NCBI GenBank assembly: GCA_903895855.1
Contig: CAITVN010000057.1
Coordinates: 1-58,246, forward strand
DNA: 58,246 nt
DNA from: Oligoflexia bacterium
Lineage (GTDB): Bacteria; Bdellovibrionota; UBA1018
Direction of reading: 5' to 3'
Positions 23-27,639 of this stretch are shown piece by piece. Position 1 is the first letter of the stretch. Every line of letters starts with the position of its first letter. The notes beneath the pieces were generated by a model, which was not told where the DNA came from, did no database searches, and saw only the letters and a program-made list of their open reading frames with translations. Position numbers and translations under genes: made by a program.

Positions 23-175
23 CGCGGCAATACCTCGGGTAATTTTATATAGTATCTCACGCTCACAAAGACCCACGCGCGGGCGCACGATGCGCCGATC
101 CCGCGCGCGAGTACACGAAGTACGGGGTCATTTGAGGGTGAGATACTCTATAAAATTACCCGAGGTATTGCCGCG
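23..175. repeat. Long imperfect palindrome (38-bp arms, GC-rich nested core)
   Basis: Positions 23-60 and 138-175 are reverse complements over 38 bp with one mismatch. Between them lies a second nested hairpin: CGCGCGGG at 76-83 pairs with CCCGCGCG at 100-107, with GGCGCA/TGCGCC inside it, and GACCC near 69 can pair with GGGTC near 124. The whole unit can fold as one rod of about 150 nt. It lies directly after the 3' end of the minus-strand peptidase gene, so it could end that transcript, or it could be a MITE or REP-like unit. I saw no target duplication at its edges and no second copy in the window. Confidence 0.8.
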
Positions 176-181
176 TTGAGG

Positions 182-1732
182 CTAGTTATGAAAATACTTG
201 TGAAAGACTGTTTTACGACCGTTTAAGTAATTCTGTCGATCTGCGCTCTTAATGTCTTCGAGAGTTGAATAGAGTTCAGAGGCCGACATGCGCCTTTGCG
301 TCTTTTGCCAGAAATCAGTTTCGCGCGAATCGAGTTCCTTAAGAATCGGCTCACCTGCTTGCTGCAACACCACGATTGTCTCAAGCGTGGTTCGAGGCAT
401 GTACTTCGGAAACTGATCGGCAAAGAGTTTGCCGAATAGCGGAAACTGTCTGATCGTGTGAACGATGTATTTGGCCAAAATGCCCGCTTTGAAATGCGGG
501 TCGAGCGCATAATTATCGACCATCATCCACTCATACATCTTTGTGAGCAGCGCGTCTTTTAAGTGAGTTTCACGCATTTTAAGATGGTCGCGCCACTCGG
601 CAATCAACTCAAAGCGAGTGTCCATCTCAAGATCGCCTGGTAAAAACGATTCAGCTTCAGAGACACCGAGGTCTTTCAAAAATGGGGTACGAGAAAGCTC
701 ATCAAGACGACTGTTCACTTGGGGCACAATATACTGACCCTTTGAAGCCGCTTCATAGGCCATATTGACTACTTCAGAACAAAAAACGGTTTTATGATCT
801 CTCAGATTTAGACCGAAATCATAGTGAATATTTTCGCCGGTCTTCGCCTTTTTTCTATTGGCGTAATCGTACATGATCTTACCTGCTCTTGCGCCTAACT
901 CTTCATCGCTTTGACGAAAAAGAGCCGACCGCACTTTACCATCGTCGAGATACTTTGAGAACTCGGCGACTACCACGCCAAATTCAATGTGGGCCTCGAT
1001 CGTATAGATTTTCTGGGTATCAGGATCTACATAAACAAGAGCGGCGTGGCTAAACTGGGCGTCGATGTCACCTAGCCGGGCAATTGCCGCACTGGTGAGC
1101 GCATCGCCGCGACTGAGTAAGACGTCTCCACTTTTGAGATCGGTCTTCGAGTCGAAAGCTTTCTGACCAGCCTTGAGAAGGGGTGCCGGAGATTTTAGAA
1201 TTTTTGACGTTTTTGGATAATCACCATCTGGTGCGATTACCGTCGGATCAACCAGGTAATCTTCGATAAATCGTGAAGCGCGATAAACATTTCTGACTGC
1301 GACGAGACATTCTTGCGAAACTGGTTGCTCGCTTGAAACAATTTTTAACCATGCTCGAAGCTCTTGACGCATTTTCCAAGATTGCTGAATCAATGACTTC
1401 GCCTTTAATCTGATTTCAGACTGATCAAAATCGCCCGACTTCGCCATTCTAATCGCCTGAAAGACATCAGGCAGAACTTGTGAGCAATTATCACGATTCA
1501 AGCTGCCAGAACGAAGCCAATGGTCGAAGCGAGTCAGATCGTTCACTAACGACCCCGATAGTCGAATCGCACTGCGAGTTGTCTTGTTGCTTTCGTCTGA
1601 AGCCGCTTGGCCTTGACTAACGAAAATGACTGCAGCAAAGGCGATCGCGATCGCAGTCATGCGGGTATCGAGATGCGCTAGCATCGCGAATTTCAACACC
1701 TTCACTAACGACAAACGCTTCAGTTTTTCCAT
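182..1732 (-). CDS. Exported YiiX/NlpC-P60-like permuted papain-fold cysteine peptidase
   Basis: Probably an exported cysteine peptidase or amidase of the YiiX/YebB-like permuted NlpC/P60 group, whose members cut amide bonds in peptidoglycan, lipids or peptides. The central part begins with a typical SGDVLLSRG motif, followed by the candidate catalytic His in FSHAALVYVD, an acidic position in YTIEAHIEFG and the candidate Cys in VFCSEVVNMAYEA. About 180 residues before it and 150 after it are helical and not recognised. The N-terminus has a hydrophobic stretch (roughly residues 19-40) ending in GQAA, which fits a signal peptide. The frame is open from a TTG at 1765, but ATG at 1732 gives a more normal signal sequence; no clear ribosome-binding site decides. 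The family call rests on motifs only. Confidence 0.6.
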   Translation of the reverse strand: MEKLKRLSLVKVLKFAMLAHLDTRMTAIAIAFAAVIFVSQGQAASDESNKTTRSAIRLSGSLVNDLTRFDHWLRSGSLNRDNCSQVLPDVFQAIRMAKSGDFDQSEIRLKAKSLIQQSWKMRQELRAWLKIVSSEQPVSQECLVAVRNVYRASRFIEDYLVDPTVIAPDGDYPKTSKILKSPAPLLKAGQKAFDSKTDLKSGDVLLSRGDALTSAAIARLGDIDAQFSHAALVYVDPDTQKIYTIEAHIEFGVVVAEFSKYLDDGKVRSALFRQSDEELGARAGKIMYDYANRKKAKTGENIHYDFGLNLRDHKTVFCSEVVNMAYEAASKGQYIVPQVNSRLDELSRTPFLKDLGVSEAESFLPGDLEMDTRFELIAEWRDHLKMRETHLKDALLTKMYEWMMVDNYALDPHFKAGILAKYIVHTIRQFPLFGKLFADQFPKYMPRTTLETIVVLQQAGEPILKELDSRETDFWQKTQRRMSASELYSTLEDIKSADRQNYLNGRKTVFHKYFHN

Positions 1733-1869: not shown

Positions 1870-2646
1870 CTACTTCTGGCGTAATTTTGCGATGTGCCTT
1901 ACCAGCTCTCTGAGCGGCGGTGCGGGTTCGTCTTCAAGATATCTCTGAAATCCCTGAATCAGGCCTTTTCTAAAAGCCTGAATCTCCGTGAATAGGTCAT
2001 TCCTATTTTGTTTTTTTGAAAGCAAAAAATCACAAGCGGCCGCCGAAAGATTAGCGCCACCCAGCGAAATCAAGACCGATTCTCCAGAAACACCTGCATC
2101 TATTTGATTACCAAGACTCACTAGGTCCTTAATTTGAATATGAGGGAACTCGCCAAATAGCCACATCAGATCGTACAGGTCTTTTTCGCTAGCACGACTG
2201 ACCAGCGTTGCCGCTTTCGTCATGAGCAATGTTCGAAGGTCAGCAACACAAACCCCATTATCAAACCTGTGAAACGCTCCCACGCGAAAAATATTTTCAT
2301 CGAGAACCGCGTCAATGGTAAACACGTGCCTTTCGAGAGAGCAAGTTACGCGAAAATACTGACCGGTTTCAGCGCCGACTTCTAAAAATTGGACCCCGAT
2401 TTTCGTCAAAGACTTCACGGCAAGGACCGTTGCCTTAAAGCTGATCGGGTCTCGCGTGAATAGGTCAATGTCATCAGAACGCCGGTGCCCAGAGTAAAAT
2501 CCTGAAAGTGCAGTGCCACCCACCAACATACACCCCTCGATGCCTTGCTTGAAAAGATGTATAATCGCATTCAATAACGGTTTTGGCAAAACCGCCTTTG
2601 CTAAATCCAGTCTGGGTTTTCGTGCAGTTTCCATATGACCTCGCAT
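1870..2646 (-). CDS. AbiEii/AbiGii-family nucleotidyltransferase toxin
   Basis: Toxin of a type IV-like toxin-antitoxin pair. Family members are nucleotidyltransferases that disable growth, some by adding nucleotides to tRNA acceptor stems. The signature GGTALSGFYSGHRRSDDIDL (about residues 43-62) holds the GG-T/S motif and the two metal-binding aspartates of the DxD type. The later SEKDLYDLMWLF matches the second conserved block of the family. Length (258 aa) is normal. It overlaps the 3' end of the upstream XRE gene by up to 46 bp, as expected of a coupled antitoxin-toxin operon. ATG at 2646 has AAGG 5 nt before it; a second ATG at 2634 has GAGG 4 nt before it, so either start is possible. 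The RNA target cannot be inferred. Confidence 0.8.
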   Translation of the reverse strand: MRGHMETARKPRLDLAKAVLPKPLLNAIIHLFKQGIEGCMLVGGTALSGFYSGHRRSDDIDLFTRDPISFKATVLAVKSLTKIGVQFLEVGAETGQYFRVTCSLERHVFTIDAVLDENIFRVGAFHRFDNGVCVADLRTLLMTKAATLVSRASEKDLYDLMWLFGEFPHIQIKDLVSLGNQIDAGVSGESVLISLGGANLSAAACDFLLSKKQNRNDLFTEIQAFRKGLIQGFQRYLEDEPAPPLRELVRHIAKLRQK

Positions 2647-3074
2647 TGTTGCCTTCTGACGGGCTGAATGTATTTTTTGAATAGCGGAAATTGCTTCCAG
2701 ATACTCACACCAACCACTTTACAAGCAGAGTAAATTCCAAAAACCTGTGTGAGCCGCGCCAAGGCCCTGAAGTCATTTTTGACAAGCGCAACAGCAAAAC
2801 TCTCTAAGTTAGGAAAAAGCCGATCCCAGAGCAGCGAAGTCAGTAAAGTGGTCGAAAGGTGAGCGTCACAAATAACAGGAAGCGGCCGCAAGAGCAGGTC
2901 TACCGACAACCCAAGGGCACTACCGAGTTTTTGTAAATGTTGAGAGTGTAAATTAATCGTATCGCGCTTGGTCCAGAGTGAAACGGCCTGCCTACTAATG
3001 CCGGTCAACTCTGCGATTTGACTTTGGTTAAGGTTTCTAACGGCGAGTAAGGTCTGAAACACTCTGCAATCCAT
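2601..3074 (-). CDS. XRE-type helix-turn-helix antitoxin of the AbiEii pair
   Basis: DNA-binding antitoxin. Residues 9-35 (RNLNQSQIAELTGISRQAVS and following) form a clear XRE/Cro-type helix-turn-helix. The C-terminal 100 residues are helical and carry the short conserved-looking stretch LARLTQVFGIYSACKVVG; these probably neutralise the toxin. Its gene comes first and overlaps the toxin gene, the usual order for AbiE-like modules, although classical AbiEi proteins have a winged-helix rather than an XRE domain. A perfect 8+2+8 bp palindrome 30 bp before its ATG is a likely site for autoregulation. Function is inferred from the helix-turn-helix and its partner. Confidence 0.7.
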   Translation of the reverse strand: MDCRVFQTLLAVRNLNQSQIAELTGISRQAVSLWTKRDTINLHSQHLQKLGSALGLSVDLLLRPLPVICDAHLSTTLLTSLLWDRLFPNLESFAVALVKNDFRALARLTQVFGIYSACKVVGVSIWKQFPLFKKYIQPVRRQQCEVIWKLHENPDWI

Positions 3075-19606: not shown

Positions 19607-19795
19607 ATGGGATATATTACAAAAATTCAAAAAGTAGAGAGACTGACAAATCAAACATTTTACGCGAATATTCCGACCGCCCTTGCTCAGGCAATCGGTC
19701 TAGAAAAAGGAGAGGAATTTGAATGGATAATTGAAGACAAGAACTTGCTCTTGTTGAAACGGGTCAAACGGTGGCGCCAAAAATTTCGTGTCTGA
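19607..19795 (+). CDS. AbrB/SpoVT-like DNA-binding protein, IS630 passenger, 3' end replaced by IS256
   Basis: Small swapped-hairpin AbrB/MazE-type protein: GYITKIQKVERLTNQTFYAN, IPTALAQAIGLEKGEEFEW and IIEDKNLLLLKR follow the pattern of this fold. GGAG lies 9 nt before the ATG. The IS256 insertion falls after codon 54 or so and replaces the tail: the present frame ends KRVKRWRQKFRV. Joining across the 8-bp duplication restores KRVKPLKKYVPKNGKD and a stop inside the right IS630 repeat, so the original protein had about 66 residues. The DNA-binding core is intact, so it may still work. It probably regulates its own element rather than being an antitoxin, as no toxin gene is present. Confidence 0.75.
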   Translation: MGYITKIQKVERLTNQTFYANIPTALAQAIGLEKGEEFEWIIEDKNLLLLKRVKRWRQKFRV

Positions 19796-21615: not shown

Positions 21616-23712
21616 TCACACCCAGGGTGCATCCTTTGAGACTATACCTTTAATCCAAAGCATTTCAGGAAAATCCGAGGCCTGGTAACCTGTACACAAA
21701 TAAATTTCTCTAAATCCCATCTCATGTATTTTTTTGCTAATTTCTTCACCTTTAACGCCATTACCGAGGTTCGAGTCGACATAAATCGGAATCCCGAAAT
21801 CAAGTGTGGGCGCCTTAAGAAAAAAATCATTCGGATTAGAAAAATAAATGAATGTCTTATTCCTAGTTTCGGATACCATCCTCCAGGACATTGCAACTAG
21901 ATTGTCGTCATCGAGCAAACAAACATCATACCTTTCTCTAGGCAACTCAACCTCCAGAGGCACCAAACTCGCCATTGTTTTAGGAATCAGTCGTATCCCC
22001 AACTTTTCACAGCGACCTCGAATCGCAGCCTCTTCAAACCGTGACGTGACCAAAATAGCCCGATCGCAAATTTGAAGCTGTTCAATAAGATCCAAACCAG
22101 TTACCGTTTGATCGAACAATTCATAATCACAAAGATAAATCGATTTCGAATTACCGTCATTGATCTTCACCCAATCTCTAAATTCCAAACCAGATGTAAA
22201 TTTTATGTGCTTAATACCGCTGGCAGAGATATTCAGAGAATCAAACCTATTCGAATAAACAGAATGTATAGATGAATCGTCATCGAGACTCACTACAATG
22301 CTATTTACTTCCAAAGTCAGTTTTTCCAAAAACCATTTCGGTGTTGGGGTTGCAGCTGGCAAGGTCATCGCAATTCTAGTACCGACCCCCTCCTCCGTCT
22401 GAATTTCAAATTTTCCACCAAAGCTCTCTATGGTTTTCTTAGCATGGTACACCCCAAGACCAGACCCTGACTGAGTTCCTTCCTTACCGTGGGTAACCCC
22501 TACTTCGCCAAGTCGTTTTAGAATATGCGGGGGAATGCCCTTGCCGTTGTCCGAAATCGAAAGCACACTGAAGTCTTTCATTTTTTCAACCGCGACAATA
22601 ATTTTCCCTCTGCAATCAGGGAAACTTTCTACAGAGTTATTTACTGAGTTGCTTATTAGCCGCTGAAGCTCTGTCGTATTGATGGCCGCAAATGCTCCAT
22701 AAGAATCAACAAAACTTCCCTCTATTTCAATACCAATTTTATCTCGGAATTGGATCCTTTTTTCACTGACAATAGAATCAACTAAAGAAGGAAGCAACTC
22801 TACTGATAACTCTGGCGCTACGCCGGTCACTACACCACCAGCCTTGTCGGCTTGGGTCTGCTCTTTACCTTTTTGAAGAAGTGTATTTGCGATATCAGAC
22901 ATCCGATTAAGGCTGGCCCTAAGAATGACTCGCTGATTCTCAGGGAGTGATGCAAGTTGTGGCAAAATTGCCTGAATCGCACTCAAAGGCGATCTTAGGT
23001 CATGTGAAACCTGCTTTGCCAAGTTAACCATCACCTCTGCAGACTTCCTCTTGGTCAGGTCCTCATTAAGTGTCGCCATTTTCACCGAAAAATCAACGAA
23101 TCGAAGAAAGACGTTTCTTAGATAAATAGATTCAATCTGATCGGCAAATTCATCTGAATGTTTCAAATCAAGAATTGAAGTTGAGCTTGCCAATAGAGAC
23201 ATAATTTTGTTTTGATCGCATTCCCTTCGCCGCCTTGAAATAAAAATTACGATTTGGCCAGAAAGTAGGACAATAAAAATCAAAAATATGAAGGGCAATG
23301 ATTCTTCCAAGACTTGAAAAAAAACGGCACCGTCACTTAGGGCAAATCTAACAATAAGTTCAGGTTTTCCGTTTAACGATAAAACCCTCTCGTGGTGTTG
23401 TAGCGTCGCGGTAATTCGTGCTGGACTTTTAAAAAGAAGAACCTCATTAACAGAAAGGACTTCAAACCACCCGATTTCAGGCGTATTCAGGAACTGCATT
23501 TGTCGCCTGAGCGATCCCAAATCCTCATATGTGCTAAAGACGGAGAAAAAATTTTCACTGGCGACCAATCGACCATTTACTTCATTTAGTAATGACTTCT
23601 TTTTGTTTTGAAACACAAACGATGTCGCCAACAGAAAGGCCACAAAGATTAGTGCATACCCAAAAAAAGAAATAGATCGGTATAACGTTTTTCTCTTCAA
23701 CAAATAAATCAC
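21616..23712 (-). CDS. Membrane hybrid histidine kinase with two C-terminal receiver domains
   Basis: Signal-sensing kinase. Two membrane helices (about 14-33 and 139-158) enclose a periplasmic domain of about 100 residues. H-box histidine is H237 in KQVSHDLRSPLSAIQ; the ATPase part has N355/N359 (ISNSVNNSVESF), D388-NGKG and GSGLG (416-420). Two receiver-like domains follow: the first with DDD at 477-479, phospho-acceptor D529 (LCDYELFD) and K578; the second with DDD at 601-603 and D646 (YVDSNLG). No DNA-binding output is fused or adjacent. Coupled by ATGA to the solute-binding lipoprotein gene before it, which suggests that the bound ligand is the signal. Last gene of the five-gene operon; AT-rich codon use. 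Confidence 0.85.
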   Translation of the reverse strand: MIYLLKRKTLYRSISFFGYALIFVAFLLATSFVFQNKKKSLLNEVNGRLVASENFFSVFSTYEDLGSLRRQMQFLNTPEIGWFEVLSVNEVLLFKSPARITATLQHHERVLSLNGKPELIVRFALSDGAVFFQVLEESLPFIFLIFIVLLSGQIVIFISRRRRECDQNKIMSLLASSTSILDLKHSDEFADQIESIYLRNVFLRFVDFSVKMATLNEDLTKRKSAEVMVNLAKQVSHDLRSPLSAIQAILPQLASLPENQRVILRASLNRMSDIANTLLQKGKEQTQADKAGGVVTGVAPELSVELLPSLVDSIVSEKRIQFRDKIGIEIEGSFVDSYGAFAAINTTELQRLISNSVNNSVESFPDCRGKIIVAVEKMKDFSVLSISDNGKGIPPHILKRLGEVGVTHGKEGTQSGSGLGVYHAKKTIESFGGKFEIQTEEGVGTRIAMTLPAATPTPKWFLEKLTLEVNSIVVSLDDDSSIHSVYSNRFDSLNISASGIKHIKFTSGLEFRDWVKINDGNSKSIYLCDYELFDQTVTGLDLIEQLQICDRAILVTSRFEEAAIRGRCEKLGIRLIPKTMASLVPLEVELPRERYDVCLLDDDNLVAMSWRMVSETRNKTFIYFSNPNDFFLKAPTLDFGIPIYVDSNLGNGVKGEEISKKIHEMGFREIYLCTGYQASDFPEMLWIKGIVSKDAPWV

Positions 23713-25151
23713 TCCACGGTTAGATCTTCAATTTTGTAGAACCCCACCCATTGAGAGGTCAAAGAAGACTCTAGCCCAGCTAGGTTGGAAGGATAATAGA
23801 ACTCCTTTTTTACACTCAAAAGCGGAAGGGATAAATGTCTACTCAGAATCACTTTATTAAAGTCCTGCAACATTGCATTTTTTTGTTCATAGGGATAACT
23901 TGATGTTCGGAATTCTTGAAAACGCTTTCTCAAATCCGCTGGCCCACAGTTAATGAGAGAGTTAGAGGGCTGGTCAGACAAGAAATCAGCAACATAGCCG
24001 TACGGATCCACGCCCGTTTCGCCCAAGAATACGATATCATACTTCTTATGTGGACCTATTATCGAGTATGGTGATTGAGGATCAAATATTTCTTTCTTTT
24101 CCTTTGTAACCACGCTGATCTTTATACCCGTTTTTCTAAAAAAGCCGTCAAAATACTCAACCAACCCTTTTTCGACCGTTGGATAAATGTTGAGGTAAAC
24201 CAATGCTACCCCGCTGGCATTCGAAAGTTTAACGCAATCTTGTGTAATCCCCTCCTTGCGCGCACCTAAAACTCCTCGTGGAATTACTGAATCTGAACCT
24301 TCAACTCGAGCACCCCCATAAATTGGCTTAAATATTTCAACCATGGCATTTCGGTCAATGCAGGAAAATAGGGTCTTCCGAATTGAGTCGTTCTTAATAT
24401 TGAAAAAAAGTGAGCTAACATTTGGATAAAATTTTTGATATTTTGTATACCCTGTTTTATCGATTCTATCGAAGAAATCCATATTCAAAAAATTGGCTTC
24501 TTGAACATCATGGATCGATCTTAATGGCTCTAATGCTGAAACAAGACTCACAACGAATTTGGTAAAATATGGGTGTCCAGACCCTACGTATTCACCAACA
24601 ACCGTTCTCTCATTAGACGTAACAAGTCTGTACGCCGACACCCCCGTTGGAAAACGACTTTCAAATGAATTTGGTTTAATGATGGCTGATTGAAGAGACG
24701 AGAGTGAATTTATTAGACCGGAATTGGGGTCAGCGAATTCTAATTCTAAACACTGAGGCCCCACTTTTTTTATTTTCTTAATGTGCTTAGTTAAAATCGT
24801 GTGCTTCTCAAAATTGTGAAAATTTGCAATCAAGTCCTCAACCAGTAGAGGGGTTCTATCAGAATAGTGTGTCTCTTTTAAACAAAAACTGAACTTTGTA
24901 AAGTTAGCATTAGCTTCCCATTTATTTAGGATACGAGATGAGATCCCGTTGCTGCCATCAAAGAAGAGAGGCTCATGAAACTGATTGATGATAGGCCAAC
25001 ATCGGTCAAGAAGATTATCTCTGGGGTTGTATGACGGGCAAATATCATTGACTATCATTGTAAAGGTTCGCGTCGTTGAAGAGCACGAGAACCCAGCGCC
25101 AAATTGAACTATTAGAGCAAGTAAAATGAATCGGCCTCTGATACCCTTCAT
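23709..25151 (-). CDS. Family 5 extracellular solute-binding lipoprotein (peptide-binding type)
   Basis: Resembles OppA/DppA-type binding proteins. Conserved pattern: HEPLFFDGSNGISSRILNKWEAN, then FSFCLKETHYSD and the middle TGVSAYRLVTSNERTVV, YKTK-like KKVGPQCLELEF and the late RHLSLPLLSVKKEFYYP. The N-terminus MKGIRGRFILLALIVQFGAGFSC fits a lipoprotein signal (Cys about 23), although the -3 residue is unusual. ATG at 25151 has AAGGG 4 nt before it and overlaps the upstream stop (ATGA), so it is preferred over GTG at 25166. No permease or ATPase genes are near, so it is probably a sensor rather than an import protein, feeding the kinase encoded next to it (inference). Confidence 0.8.
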   Translation of the reverse strand: MKGIRGRFILLALIVQFGAGFSCSSTTRTFTMIVNDICPSYNPRDNLLDRCWPIINQFHEPLFFDGSNGISSRILNKWEANANFTKFSFCLKETHYSDRTPLLVEDLIANFHNFEKHTILTKHIKKIKKVGPQCLELEFADPNSGLINSLSSLQSAIIKPNSFESRFPTGVSAYRLVTSNERTVVGEYVGSGHPYFTKFVVSLVSALEPLRSIHDVQEANFLNMDFFDRIDKTGYTKYQKFYPNVSSLFFNIKNDSIRKTLFSCIDRNAMVEIFKPIYGGARVEGSDSVIPRGVLGARKEGITQDCVKLSNASGVALVYLNIYPTVEKGLVEYFDGFFRKTGIKISVVTKEKKEIFDPQSPYSIIGPHKKYDIVFLGETGVDPYGYVADFLSDQPSNSLINCGPADLRKRFQEFRTSSYPYEQKNAMLQDFNKVILSRHLSLPLLSVKKEFYYPSNLAGLESSLTSQWVGFYKIEDLTVE

Positions 25152-26482
25152 GAGACCCTTTGACACTGACTTGAGGCATACCGAAGGATCTTTATTGATC
25201 TGTCTGAATTTCTCTCAAAGAAAGCAACTTCACCATCATAGGGGCCACCAACTATCAGAAAGTGATCTACCTTATCGATTGGGCACAGCGTGGCTTCATC
25301 AAAAAGGCCAGGTAAAGCCGAGTCTACCACTCCCAATCTATTACTTAAAACTGCCAATTGGAACCTGCTGCCATCAAATTGATCTTGGTATAAACCCCTA
25401 TATTCCAAAAGGTGCGCCCATGAAGGCTGACTTGCATTCATATCCTTGATACAACGAAAATGTTTTTCAACAAGGGGTAGAATTGACCTAATAATAGCTT
25501 TAGCAAGAGAAAATAGCAAAGTATCGGAGTTTGTCATCATATTAAATGATAAACCTAAATCTGGAACTAGACAAACTGTACTGCAAAATCCCGGCAAGTG
25601 GCCAGACAAGAAATAGACCCTCCTATTTTCAATGGTTAAACACCTCGTACCCATGGCCGTAAAACTATCGGGAGTCAATCCAAAGTGTCGAGGCAAGAAC
25701 AGCTCATGTTTTAAAAGGTGTGGCACGAAGGCATCATCGTTTGTGAGCAAAATATCCAAAAAACTGGTTAAATCCTCAGCAGAAGAATAGAGTTGCCCAG
25801 CCGGGGCCAGCCCCTTCAATTCCAATGGCATCTGTTTAATTATTGTGTTGTCTTGGCCAATAGAATATCCGTTAGCACTCCCTGGCATAGGCTTTAATGA
25901 TGTTCGCGTTAAAGCCAAAGGCTCAAGAACTAGATCATTCAGAATTTCTGGATAGGTCTTCTTAAAAATTCGTTCTAATGCAAGCCCAACAATATAGTAT
26001 CCAATATTTGAATATTTATATTTTTGATTTTGAAAAAAGACAGGATCAATCCGCACAATGACGTTCAGAAGCTCCTCTGAAGTGGGAAACTGCTGCCAAT
26101 AAATGCTTTCAACATCTCTGGGAAGGCCTGCAGTGTGGGTAACTAAGTGAAGTAAGGTTAGGTTTCCAGTTTTATCTTTAAACGTCTGAGGAAAAATCTC
26201 ATTCAATGTAGTAGAAAAGGTCACTTTTGCCAAACTAACTGCCTTCAAGAGCATCAGAAGTGTAAAAAGCTTTGTTACAGAGCCCACTCTCAACTGATCT
26301 CTGATAGTCAAGACTCTTCGAGTTTCCAGATCTGCAAAACCAAAACTCGAAGAAAATTTCCCGACCCCCTGAAAACTCAGTCCGTAAGACAACCCTATGA
26401 CCCCAGGGTTGTCTTGAAGGTGGATCGAAATAGATTTATCCAAAGAAAGTTTCAGTGTTTCAAGTATTCTAGTTCTGATCAA
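25148..26482 (-). CDS. Serine hydrolase of the beta-lactamase class C/S12 peptidase family
   Basis: Penicillin-binding-fold hydrolase acting on peptides, esters or amides. Catalytic motifs: SxxK as GSVTKLF (S68, K71 in this numbering), YxN as KYSNIGYY (Y157, N159), and a third motif near FLSGHLPGF. LVTHTAGLPRDVE is typical of the family. The open frame continues to 26551, but TTG at 26482 has a perfect AGGAGG 7 nt upstream and reduces the overlap with the radical SAM gene to 14 bp, so it is chosen. With this start there is no signal peptide, so the enzyme would be cytosolic, which is unusual for a family often exported. Coupled by ATGA to the binding-protein gene. Substrate unknown. Confidence 0.85.
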   Translation of the reverse strand: MIRTRILETLKLSLDKSISIHLQDNPGVIGLSYGLSFQGVGKFSSSFGFADLETRRVLTIRDQLRVGSVTKLFTLLMLLKAVSLAKVTFSTTLNEIFPQTFKDKTGNLTLLHLVTHTAGLPRDVESIYWQQFPTSEELLNVIVRIDPVFFQNQKYKYSNIGYYIVGLALERIFKKTYPEILNDLVLEPLALTRTSLKPMPGSANGYSIGQDNTIIKQMPLELKGLAPAGQLYSSAEDLTSFLDILLTNDDAFVPHLLKHELFLPRHFGLTPDSFTAMGTRCLTIENRRVYFLSGHLPGFCSTVCLVPDLGLSFNMMTNSDTLLFSLAKAIIRSILPLVEKHFRCIKDMNASQPSWAHLLEYRGLYQDQFDGSRFQLAVLSNRLGVVDSALPGLFDEATLCPIDKVDHFLIVGGPYDGEVAFFERNSDRSIKILRYASSQCQRVS

Positions 26483-27335
26483 GTTGATACCTCCTACAAA
26501 AAAATGCCTCACAGAGATTGCAAGAAATTGAATTACTTGGGTCGTTTTCAAATTTCTTATCTACAAGCATTTCAAGAAATGAGGTCGCTTGAATTGTCTT
26601 ATAAAAATCACTTTGCACAAGTAACCCAATAGAGCTAAAAGCAACGTTCTCGGCCATGACACTATTTCCAAAAATAAGGTTACCGCAACATGCAGAAAAT
26701 CCCTTAGCGGGAACATAAACAATAGTTGACTCCTCAATCATCAGGCACTTGCCTTTCAAGTCAGCTTTGGAAAAGAGGGCTGGCTCATAATAGGTTTGGG
26801 TCTTTCTTGCTCTGCCCATTCGAACTACTTTGTTGAACTTACATAGTGCCCGCAGCTCTTCAGGTAAAAATTTAATCGCCTCAACATCTCTGGGAGAGGT
26901 CAAAGACACGGCGATAGAAACGAGTGTATTTCGTTTTTTCCAATATTGAACAAATGCTATTAGATCTTCAATTCTGCAAAATTTCGAGTGGAACTTGTCA
27001 ATTGAAACCTGGACCTCATCAAAACCAAAACAATTAAGAAGAGACTCAAAATTTTTCCTAGAGGCAACAGACCCATTTGTAACAACTTTAAGTCTTGGTT
27101 TGTACTCCAGCCTATCAAGGATGTACCGAATCTTATCCGAGTAGCAGGCCAAAGGCTCCCCCCCCGTAAAACTCAACCACTGAGGTCTTTGTTTATTAGC
27201 GAAAGAAATACACTCATTCGTCTCTTCAGGTGTCAACTCCATCGAATTACTCGGGTGACTTTCAACTATGCAGTGCCCACAACTAAAATTACACCTATAG
27301 CCTAGAAGAATTGTAAATTGTGTAATTTCGGCCAT
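26469..27335 (-). CDS. Radical SAM protein with SPASM-like C-terminal cysteines
   Basis: Iron-sulphur enzyme generating a 5'-deoxyadenosyl radical. The cluster motif CxxxCxxC is C15-C19-C22 in YRCNFSCGHC; FTGGEPL (57-62) binds SAM. Cysteines at 197, 216, 217, 272, 275 and 280 (FSACCGN, CNLCEAFFC) resemble a short SPASM/twitch region for auxiliary clusters, as in enzymes that modify ribosomally made peptides. Length (288 aa) is at the short end for a SPASM enzyme. It follows a small exported protein by 16 bp and overlaps the hydrolase by 14 bp. Peptide modification is the natural guess from context, but an unrelated substrate cannot be excluded. GGAAG lies 10 nt before the ATG. Confidence 0.85.
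   Translation of the reverse strand: MAEITQFTILLGYRCNFSCGHCIVESHPSNSMELTPEETNECISFANKQRPQWLSFTGGEPLACYSDKIRYILDRLEYKPRLKVVTNGSVASRKNFESLLNCFGFDEVQVSIDKFHSKFCRIEDLIAFVQYWKKRNTLVSIAVSLTSPRDVEAIKFLPEELRALCKFNKVVRMGRARKTQTYYEPALFSKADLKGKCLMIEESTIVYVPAKGFSACCGNLIFGNSVMAENVAFSSIGLLVQSDFYKTIQATSFLEMLVDKKFENDPSNSISCNLCEAFFCRRYQLDQN
26490..26495 (-). promoter_or_regulatory. Consensus ribosome-binding site deciding a TTG start
   Basis: AGGAGG on the minus strand, followed by TATCAAC and TTG. It is the strongest Shine-Dalgarno sequence in this operon and lies inside the 3' end of the radical SAM gene. It sets the start of the serine hydrolase at 26482. Confidence 0.8.
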
Positions 27336-27351
27336 AACAATTCATCTTCCT

Positions 27352-27639
27352 TTAACCAAGAATGGGTGGTGGTGAAGCCATCTTAAACTCCGTTTGACCC
27401 GCCATCAGCTCCAAAAGGGTGTCCAAAAGATCTTGCCTCTCCTGCAGAGAAAGTTGATCAACATAAATTGTTGCATTATCTCTGTCGTAAAAACCACCAA
27501 AAACTAACACCTCGATCAGTCTTTGCTCTGCTTTATCGCTAGATCGATCATACGAAACAGGTAAACTCGACGCAGCTGAAATTGAAATTGAAATTGACAG
27601 CAGTCCGGATAAATATACAAAAAGTTTTTTTAAATTCAT
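27352..27639 (-). CDS. Small exported protein, possible precursor peptide of the radical SAM operon
   Basis: No family recognised. From ATG at 27639 it has 95 residues: a signal-peptide-like start (MNLKKLFVYLSGLLSISISI, then SAAS), a short acidic/helical body with DQLSLQERQDLLDTLLELM, and a proline-rich end FKMASPPPILG. First gene of the operon, 16 bp before the radical SAM gene, a common arrangement for modified peptides, although those leaders are usually not Sec signals. AGGAAGG at 14-20 nt before this ATG seems to serve a tiny frame, ATG AAA ACG TTA TGA, whose stop overlaps the start (ATGA); alternatively the longer frame from 27669 is used. The ISISIS stretch comes from a 6-bp tandem repeat. 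Confidence 0.5.
   Translation of the reverse strand: MNLKKLFVYLSGLLSISISISAASSLPVSYDRSSDKAEQRLIEVLVFGGFYDRDNATIYVDQLSLQERQDLLDTLLELMAGQTEFKMASPPPILG

What the first reader, a model, noticed from the sequence alone, without database searches (positions are those of the whole stretch)
21616..27639. Five-gene operon: small secreted peptide, radical SAM enzyme, cytosolic serine hydrolase, solute-binding lipoprotein and double-receiver hybrid kinase
All five genes are on one strand with a 16-bp gap, a 14-bp overlap and two ATGA overlaps, behind one good promoter. The parts would make a circuit: a gene-encoded small protein, a radical SAM enzyme with SPASM-like cysteines that could modify it, a beta-lactamase-fold enzyme that could trim or ligate it, a peptide-type binding lipoprotein without any ABC permease, and a kinase coupled to that lipoprotein. 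This looks like production and sensing of a modified peptide (signal or prey-derived ligand). I know of no described system with this combination. The stretch is AT-richer than its neighbours and lies next to nested insertion sequences, so it may be acquired. The function is an inference.
Basis: partly seen in the sequence, partly recalled or inferred. Interest (0 to 1): 0.85.

Follow-up and report, generated by a model that had tools for sequence, protein, structure and literature searches.

The report
Modified-peptide sensing cassettes with swappable enzymes
A relative of the predatory bacterium Bdellovibrio carries nine gene sets in which a small peptide that is predicted to be secreted sits with an enzyme of peptide-modifying type, a binding protein and mostly a sensor kinase, and these sets likely work as private chemical-signal circuits of a kind I found no description of.

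The parts
27352..27639 (-). precursor-type peptide, 95 aa, N-terminal signal-peptide-like stretch, no Cys
   Evidence: my signal heuristic is met; mature part similar to the peptide beside the same enzyme in L228 (score 58, 0 of 3766 other small ORFs as high)
27376..27528 (-). stretch of the peptide (residues 38-88) aligned with the L228 precursor
   Evidence: alignment
26469..27335 (-). radical SAM enzyme of EpeE/YydG type, likely peptide epimerase
   Evidence: C15, C19, C22 (CX3CX2C), C197, C216, C272, C275 invariant and C217 nearly so in 16 sequences
25148..26482 (-). S12 (beta-lactamase-fold) serine hydrolase with SVTK, YSN and HLPG motifs (motif roles recalled); accessory, seen only in this cassette
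   Evidence: its profile hits only this gene (twice, as window slice and L001) in the regions and nothing in those
23709..25151 (-). family-5 solute-binding protein, probable lipoprotein; no permease among the neighbouring genes scanned
21616..23712 (-). hybrid-type histidine kinase: two TM segments (about residues 13-35 and 130-160) around a periplasmic region of about 100 residues, HisKA, HATPase
21619..22320 (-). two divergent receiver-like domains at the kinase's C-terminus
   Evidence: Pfam Response_reg not reached in the window protein

Best explanation
The five window genes are one member of a family of cassettes that recurs across the phylum of Bdellovibrio, in which a small precursor-type peptide and an enzyme of changing peptide-modifying type sit with a family-5 solute-binding protein and usually a histidine kinase, and the cassette is predicted to make a modified peptide that its own binding protein and kinase would sense. 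Proposed mechanism: the EpeE-like enzyme likely inverts one or more residues of the precursor in the cytosol (inferred from fold and conserved Cys; the S12 hydrolase may trim the product, inferred). The signal-peptide-like N-terminus would send the product through Sec to the periplasm, so no dedicated exporter is needed (inferred). The mature peptide would be captured by the binding protein, which would dock on the kinase's short periplasmic domain and set its phosphorylation state (inferred). Phosphate would pass to the two receiver-like domains and on to an unidentified partner (inferred). Because enzyme and peptide differ between cassettes while binding protein and kinase stay the same in kind, each cassette would be a separate channel, sensing the cell's own or its kin's product. 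Shown directly: gene order, co-occurrence, family assignments, conserved residues, precursor similarity. Not shown: the modification, the ligand, the output.
Against: No product, binding or phosphorylation was measured. Of 78 assessable kinase loci, 34 lack the binding protein; one examined has another kind of periplasmic binding protein (L063), so the kinase family is not tied to RiPPs. Two of 26 radical SAM loci lack the binding protein, and 4 of 23 show no small ORF. Of 17 precursors compared with the window peptide only 3 beat all 500 shuffles; 10 show no similarity. The match to the YydG equivalog model is far below its cut-off (52.5 against 300 bits). The receiver-like domains are not recognised by Pfam in the window kinase or by solved response regulators. 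The binding protein of one Elusimicrobia locus (L033) has no Pfam match and was assigned by my own profile only. A cytosolic maturase acting on a Sec substrate is unusual. I saw no recurring protease, immunity gene or output regulator, but many neighbouring genes were not assigned. The binding-protein model is only moderate (pLDDT 66), and family-5 proteins also bind opines, metals and sugars. LanM-linked peptides L155 and L100 have no obvious signal peptide.
Confidence: 0.6

Rival explanations
1. The modified peptides are antimicrobial (bacteriocin or cannibalism type, like the epipeptide), and the binding protein plus kinase is the producer's sensor for autoinduction or self-protection.
For: EpeE's own product is an epipeptide that inhibits Gram-positive bacteria and triggers LiaRS (PMC8326336, passages read); many RiPP clusters carry two-component systems (recalled).
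Against: A motif scan for ABC ATPases finds one in 2 of 59 binding-protein regions and in 0 of 19 radical SAM regions (heuristic), and I saw no recurring immunity gene, though many neighbours were not assigned; 13 loci in one genome with the sensor as the constant part fit signalling better.
Confidence: 0.2
2. The binding protein and kinase sense foreign peptides (prey or host derived), and the locally encoded peptide is a competitor or tuning subunit that sets the threshold.
For: Several relatives are labelled as Bdellovibrio or Bacteriovorax; family-5 proteins bind many peptides.
Against: It does not explain why RiPP-type maturases are the variable part and travel with the binding protein.
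Confidence: 0.1
3. The enzyme does not act on the small peptide but on the binding protein or kinase, or makes a small molecule that the binding protein detects.
For: The pairing of peptide and enzyme rests on neighbourhood and similarity only; 4 of 23 radical SAM loci show no small ORF.
Against: The window peptide resembles those of other loci; four LanM-linked small ORFs share an IDLxx(L/I)-like stretch before Ser/Thr-containing tails (L071, L100, L155, L157; by eye); the L158 enzyme is a RiPP maturase over a curated cut-off.
Confidence: 0.07
4. The genes are neighbours by chance or by linkage in an acquired island without common function.
For: AT-rich stretch next to transposase genes.
Against: 24 of 26 loci found from the enzyme side keep enzyme and binding protein together (two pairs of these loci are near-identical); own-genome controls.
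Confidence: 0.03

Closest known systems
Epipeptide cluster epeXEPAB (formerly yydFGHIJ) of Bacillus subtilis
   Same: Small precursor with a radical SAM enzyme of the same fold and Cys-Cys pair; envelope two-component response triggered by the product (PMC8326336 passages)
   Different: No EpeP-type peptidase and no EpeAB exporter among the ten window genes scanned; instead an S12 hydrolase, a solute-binding protein and a kinase; Gram-negative carriers; Sec-type signal on the precursor
RiPP clusters with two-component regulation (nisin NisRK type; recalled)
   Same: Modified peptide, maturase and kinase encoded together
   Different: There the maturase defines the class and the kinase binds the peptide itself; here binding protein plus kinase is the constant part and the maturase class changes from locus to locus
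Binding-protein-dependent kinases (LuxP-LuxQ, TorT-TorS; recalled)
   Same: Periplasmic binding protein gene next to a hybrid-type kinase gene, no permease seen
   Different: Family-5 (peptide-type) binding protein, and the putative ligand's gene and maturase lie in the same operon
Pheromone-binding lipoproteins PrgZ/TraC of Enterococcus (recalled)
   Same: Family-5 lipoprotein proposed to bind a gene-encoded peptide
   Different: PrgZ hands the peptide to an importer for a cytosolic regulator; here no importer is seen, and a transmembrane kinase stands in its place

Membership tests
EpeE/YydG radical SAM peptide epimerase | Radical SAM CX3CX2C motif | tested here: met
   C15, C19, C22 invariant in 16 sequences; PF04055 over cut-off
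EpeE/YydG radical SAM peptide epimerase | EpeE fold in preference to other radical SAM folds | tested here: met
EpeE/YydG radical SAM peptide epimerase | Catalytic Cys223 equivalent | tested here: met
   EpeE Cys-Cys pair aligns with C216-C217; Cys223 is reported as critical (PMC8326336 passages); that 223 is one of this pair rests on my offset from the entry numbering; C217 is missing in 1 of 16 sequences
EpeE/YydG radical SAM peptide epimerase | NCBIfam equivalog TIGR04078 over cut-off | tested here: not met
   52.5 bits against 300; so not filed as a YydG equivalog, only as EpeE-like
EpeE/YydG radical SAM peptide epimerase | L-to-D inversion of a peptide residue | not testable with these tools
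   needs enzyme assay
Epipeptide (EPE) cluster | EpeP peptidase and EpeAB ABC exporter | tested here: not met
   None among the five genes and five flanking ORFs scanned
RiPP biosynthetic locus | Gene-encoded precursor beside a maturase, kept as a pair | tested here: met
   Small ORF directly upstream in 19 of 23 assessable radical SAM loci; precursor similarity
RiPP biosynthetic locus | Modified peptide detected | not testable with these tools
   needs mass spectrometry
Binding-protein-dependent hybrid kinase | Periplasmic binding protein gene linked to a kinase with the phospho-accepting His | tested here: met
   His in 103 of 106 kinases of at least 500 aa; linkage
Binding-protein-dependent hybrid kinase | True receiver domains at the C-terminus | tested here: inconclusive
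   Putative acceptor Asp in 103 of 106 (first) and 73 of 106 (second; 32 have a gap there); but Response_reg not reached in the window protein, weak in 2 of 6 relatives
Binding-protein-dependent hybrid kinase | Binding protein docks on the kinase periplasmic domain | not tested
   no complex prediction was run
S12 peptidase/esterase | PF00144 over cut-off | tested here: met
   126 bits against 27; nearest solved sequences DD-carboxypeptidase, Flp, alkaline D-peptidase, ClbP

The most novel reading that the evidence does not exclude
A Gram-negative phylum runs banks of private peptide-signal channels. Each channel is a cassette in which a generic receptor unit (binding lipoprotein plus receiver-tailed kinase) is paired with its own Sec-exported RiPP pheromone, and orthogonality comes from swapping the chemistry (D-residues, azolines, dehydrated residues, C-methylation, lactams or esters) rather than only the sequence. 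One genome holds 13 or more such channels.
Probability: 0.5. Interest if true: 0.93.

Novelty: categorically new. Interest (0 to 1): 0.85.

Why it matters
It would be a peptide-pheromone system for Gram-negative bacteria built on RiPP chemistry, with a receptor unit that stays constant while the maturase class changes, in a phylum of predators for which my searches found no described peptide-signalling system. It gives natural-product chemists a handle (binding protein plus kinase) to find unannotated RiPP families with several maturase classes, and gives signalling biologists matched ligand-receptor pairs whose putative ligand gene is next door, so the ligand question is directly testable.

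Tried and rejected
Single-sequence search with the radical SAM protein in 5.8 billion proteins returned only itself; an alignment was needed (17 proteins). The promoter scan gave chance-level hits. DNA comparison of the window with contigs C1, C58, C149 and C42 shows no similarity in the cassette itself, so the window cassette is not a recent copy of those. The idea that the hydrolase belongs to the core set was dropped: its profile hits only this gene in the regions tested. The idea that all kinases of this family are RiPP sensors was dropped: 34 of 78 loci lack the binding protein. Not every YcaO in the class belongs: 15 of 27 matches have the binding protein adjacent or one gene away; a second YcaO locus type without it exists. 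A common leader alignment over all maturase classes was not convincing. EpeE Asp210 (mutated in a deposited structure) has no clear counterpart in the alignment. The attempt to confirm the receivers by solved-structure profile failed.

Limits of the surveys: in the phylum searches only 6 or 7 candidates per genome were scored, the match list was capped, and I fetched neighbourhoods for 40 regions of it and for most but not all of the class list, so the counts are lower bounds and favour high-scoring kinases.

Literature: ten searches of open-access papers, some with capped listings, showed no description of this gene combination; subscription papers and preprints are not held. PMC8326336: passages read. 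PMC8939145 and PMC8067016: passages read; the latter says that RiPP clusters occur in Bdellovibrionota. All other papers: listings only. NisRK, LuxPQ, TorTS, PrgZ, and the S12 and receiver motif roles are recalled.
Full report
OBSERVATION. The five ORFs are present, intact and on the minus strand. Pfam and NCBIfam assign them as read, except that the radical SAM enzyme is nearest the YydG peptide epimerase, and that the two C-terminal domains of the kinase are not recognised as receivers in the window protein. In six related kinases Response_reg appears twice, weakly and below cut-off, and a profile of this part finds no response regulator of known structure. The receiver reading rests on conserved residues. 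Further corrections: one overlap is GTGA, the hydrolase start is TTG, no promoter stands out. The stretch is AT-rich and next to two transposase genes.

PARALOGUES. The window's genome (5.37 Mb, 244 contigs) has three further cassettes with the same kind of radical SAM gene: C58, and two near-identical ones that are split over contigs, C1 (apparently continued on C217) and C149 with C42 (91-94.5% DNA identity; that these contigs belong together is inferred). They show the peptide, the enzyme and the binding protein in this order; C42 also shows the whole kinase, while the C58 kinase ORF stops after 62 aa. A locus in another genome of the same family (G009; the same sequence as a MAG labelled Bdellovibrio sp.) has peptide, enzyme-GNAT fusion, binding protein and kinase. 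The kinases of C42 and G009 are each 36% identical to the window's. The phylum name rests on MAG labels.

THE KINASE AS A HANDLE. A profile of the receiver-like part finds 24 matched stretches in the own genome, 36 of 58 genomes in the class, 110 of 368 in the phylum and 18 loci in named MAGs, including Elusimicrobia. I fetched neighbourhoods of part of these. After removing duplicates there are 129 loci; 78 have at least 3.5 kb upstream. Of these, 44 have the family-5 binding protein within five genes and 28 also a radical SAM, YcaO or LanM-like gene; 34 have no such binding protein. The regions were chosen by kinase score.

THE VARIABLE ENZYME. In the place held by the radical SAM gene in the window, other cassettes have YcaO, a LanM-like DUF4135 protein, another radical SAM type (L081, L135), B12 radical SAM with methyltransferase (L158, L170; L139 without the methyltransferase), ATP-grasp (L080, L172), SagD-like YcaO plus SagB-like dehydrogenase (L094), or alpha/beta hydrolase plus ICMT-like protein (L060; L109, where the ICMT match is just under its cut-off). 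The L158 enzyme is above the curated cut-off for 'RiPP maturation radical SAM C-methyltransferase' (488 against 281.85 bits). Several YcaO matches are below the Pfam cut-off. In the own genome I count 13 loci with a binding protein and one of radical SAM (C57, C58, C1, C149 with C42, C82), YcaO (C184, C189 twice, C180, C2, C46, C188) or LanM-like (C56); C143 (hydrolase, ICMT) and C84 (ATP-grasp) are further candidates. At nine of the 13 (C57, C58, C1, C149, C82, one C189 locus, C2, C188, C56) a small same-strand ORF that passes my signal-peptide heuristic lies in the cassette; at C184 the only candidate is on the opposite strand. Six of the nine show a kinase gene, in whole or cut by a contig end (C57, C149 with C42, C82, C189, C2, C56).

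CONTROLS. In the own genome each of the 7 YcaO matches has a family-5 binding protein within 4 kb and 6 have a kinase of this family within 6 kb. Of 18 such kinases 10 have the binding protein within 6 kb; of 70 other kinases 4 do (Fisher p 6.5e-6). Of 30 radical SAM matches 4 do within 4 kb: three EpeE-like and the C82 enzyme; the fourth EpeE-like one is split over two contigs. In the class, 15 of 27 YcaO matches have the binding protein adjacent or one gene away. Small ORFs with a signal peptide by my own heuristic occur in 22 of 60 blocks against 35 of 595 control genes in the same regions.

THE RADICAL SAM SIDE. An independent survey with the enzyme profile gives 27 matches in 21 of 368 genomes, that is 26 loci if C149 and C42 are one. 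Binding protein present: 24 of 26; the exceptions, G090 and G111, are weak matches with longer proteins. Two pairs (G261/G262, G116/G117:C75) are near-identical. A small ORF lies within about 30 bp upstream in 19 of 23 (one locus is cut by its contig end; L221, L222, L227 and L238 show none). A histidine kinase is seen in 15 of 24; of the other nine, seven are cut by contig ends, C58 has a truncated kinase and G262 has none. Several of these kinases are about 440-450 aa and do not match the receiver profile. In 11 of the 19 regions fetched a 200-280 aa protein stands between enzyme and binding protein; of ten such proteins scanned, five match GNAT families weakly, one of them over its cut-off. 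The window has the S12 hydrolase in that place.

THE PEPTIDE. The mature part of the window peptide aligns with the peptide at L228 (score 58; 0 of 500 shuffles and 0 of 3766 other small ORFs reach it), and with L225 and L229 (50 and 47; 0 of 500 shuffles, but one other ORF scores 51). Of 17 peptides compared, L232 had 2 of 500, three had 11-18 of 500 and ten had no similarity. Of these 18 peptides (window included) 14 pass the signal heuristic. Of 15 YcaO-linked peptides listed, 8 contain Cys. The four LanM-linked ones share an IDLxx(L/I)-like stretch before Ser/Thr-containing tails (by eye). L110 has two tandem peptides with one N-terminal part and different tails.

THE ENZYME. The model (pLDDT 90.6) matches EpeE far above other radical SAM folds. 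C197 and the C216-C217 pair line up with EpeE cysteines. EpeE's Cys223 is the proposed hydrogen donor (PMC8326336, passages); by the entry's numbering it is one of the aligned pair (my inference). Sequence relatives of the S12 hydrolase include enzymes that act at D-residues (alkaline D-peptidase, DD-carboxypeptidase), which would fit trimming next to an inverted residue (inference).

MECHANISM AND LIMITS. I read this as a RiPP-pheromone circuit: cytosolic modification, Sec export, capture by the binding protein, kinase control. Everything after gene linkage, fold, similarity and residue conservation is inference. I saw no recurring output gene, but many neighbours were not assigned. No prior description was found in ten searches of an open-access library, which does not cover subscription journals.

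Noticed in passing
L015 (C1), L059 (C217), L017 (C149), L018 (C42): Two near-identical copies of a radical SAM cassette in one genome, 91-94.5% identical in DNA, apparently split over four contigs by the assembly.
   Followed up: partly
L015 1494-1676, L017 1203-1421, L018 5249-5434, L059 9657-9842: A short repeated ORF ending in the same ten or more residues on all four of these contigs, absent from the window; perhaps a small mobile repeat.
   Followed up: no
L016 111-299; window 47-185: The kinase ORF of the C58 cassette stops after 62 aa; positions 2-140 of that contig are 89% identical to window 47-185, a repeat at two contig ends.
   Followed up: no
L181, L183, L186, L187, L188, L191: A second YcaO locus type in the class, with neighbouring proteins of about 190-250 aa and no binding protein of this family.
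   Followed up: no
L063 4942-6015 and 2888-4945: A kinase of the same family sits next to a Peripla_BP_6/ANF_receptor-type binding protein, so the kinase family may use several kinds of binding protein.
   Followed up: partly
L110 6317-6484 region: Two tandem small peptides with the same N-terminal part and different tails beside several binding-protein genes.
   Followed up: no
L077 2879-3163: The small peptide of the C188 YcaO cassette repeats a GDTPWG segment, as a multi-core precursor might.
   Followed up: no
window 1870-3074: Two overlapping minus-strand genes (258 aa and an HTH-like 157 aa protein) look like a nucleotidyltransferase-type toxin-antitoxin or abortive-infection pair; judged by eye only.
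   Followed up: no
window 19607-19795: A small MazE-like (AbrB-type) ORF between the two transposase genes, slightly under the Pfam cut-off.
   Followed up: no
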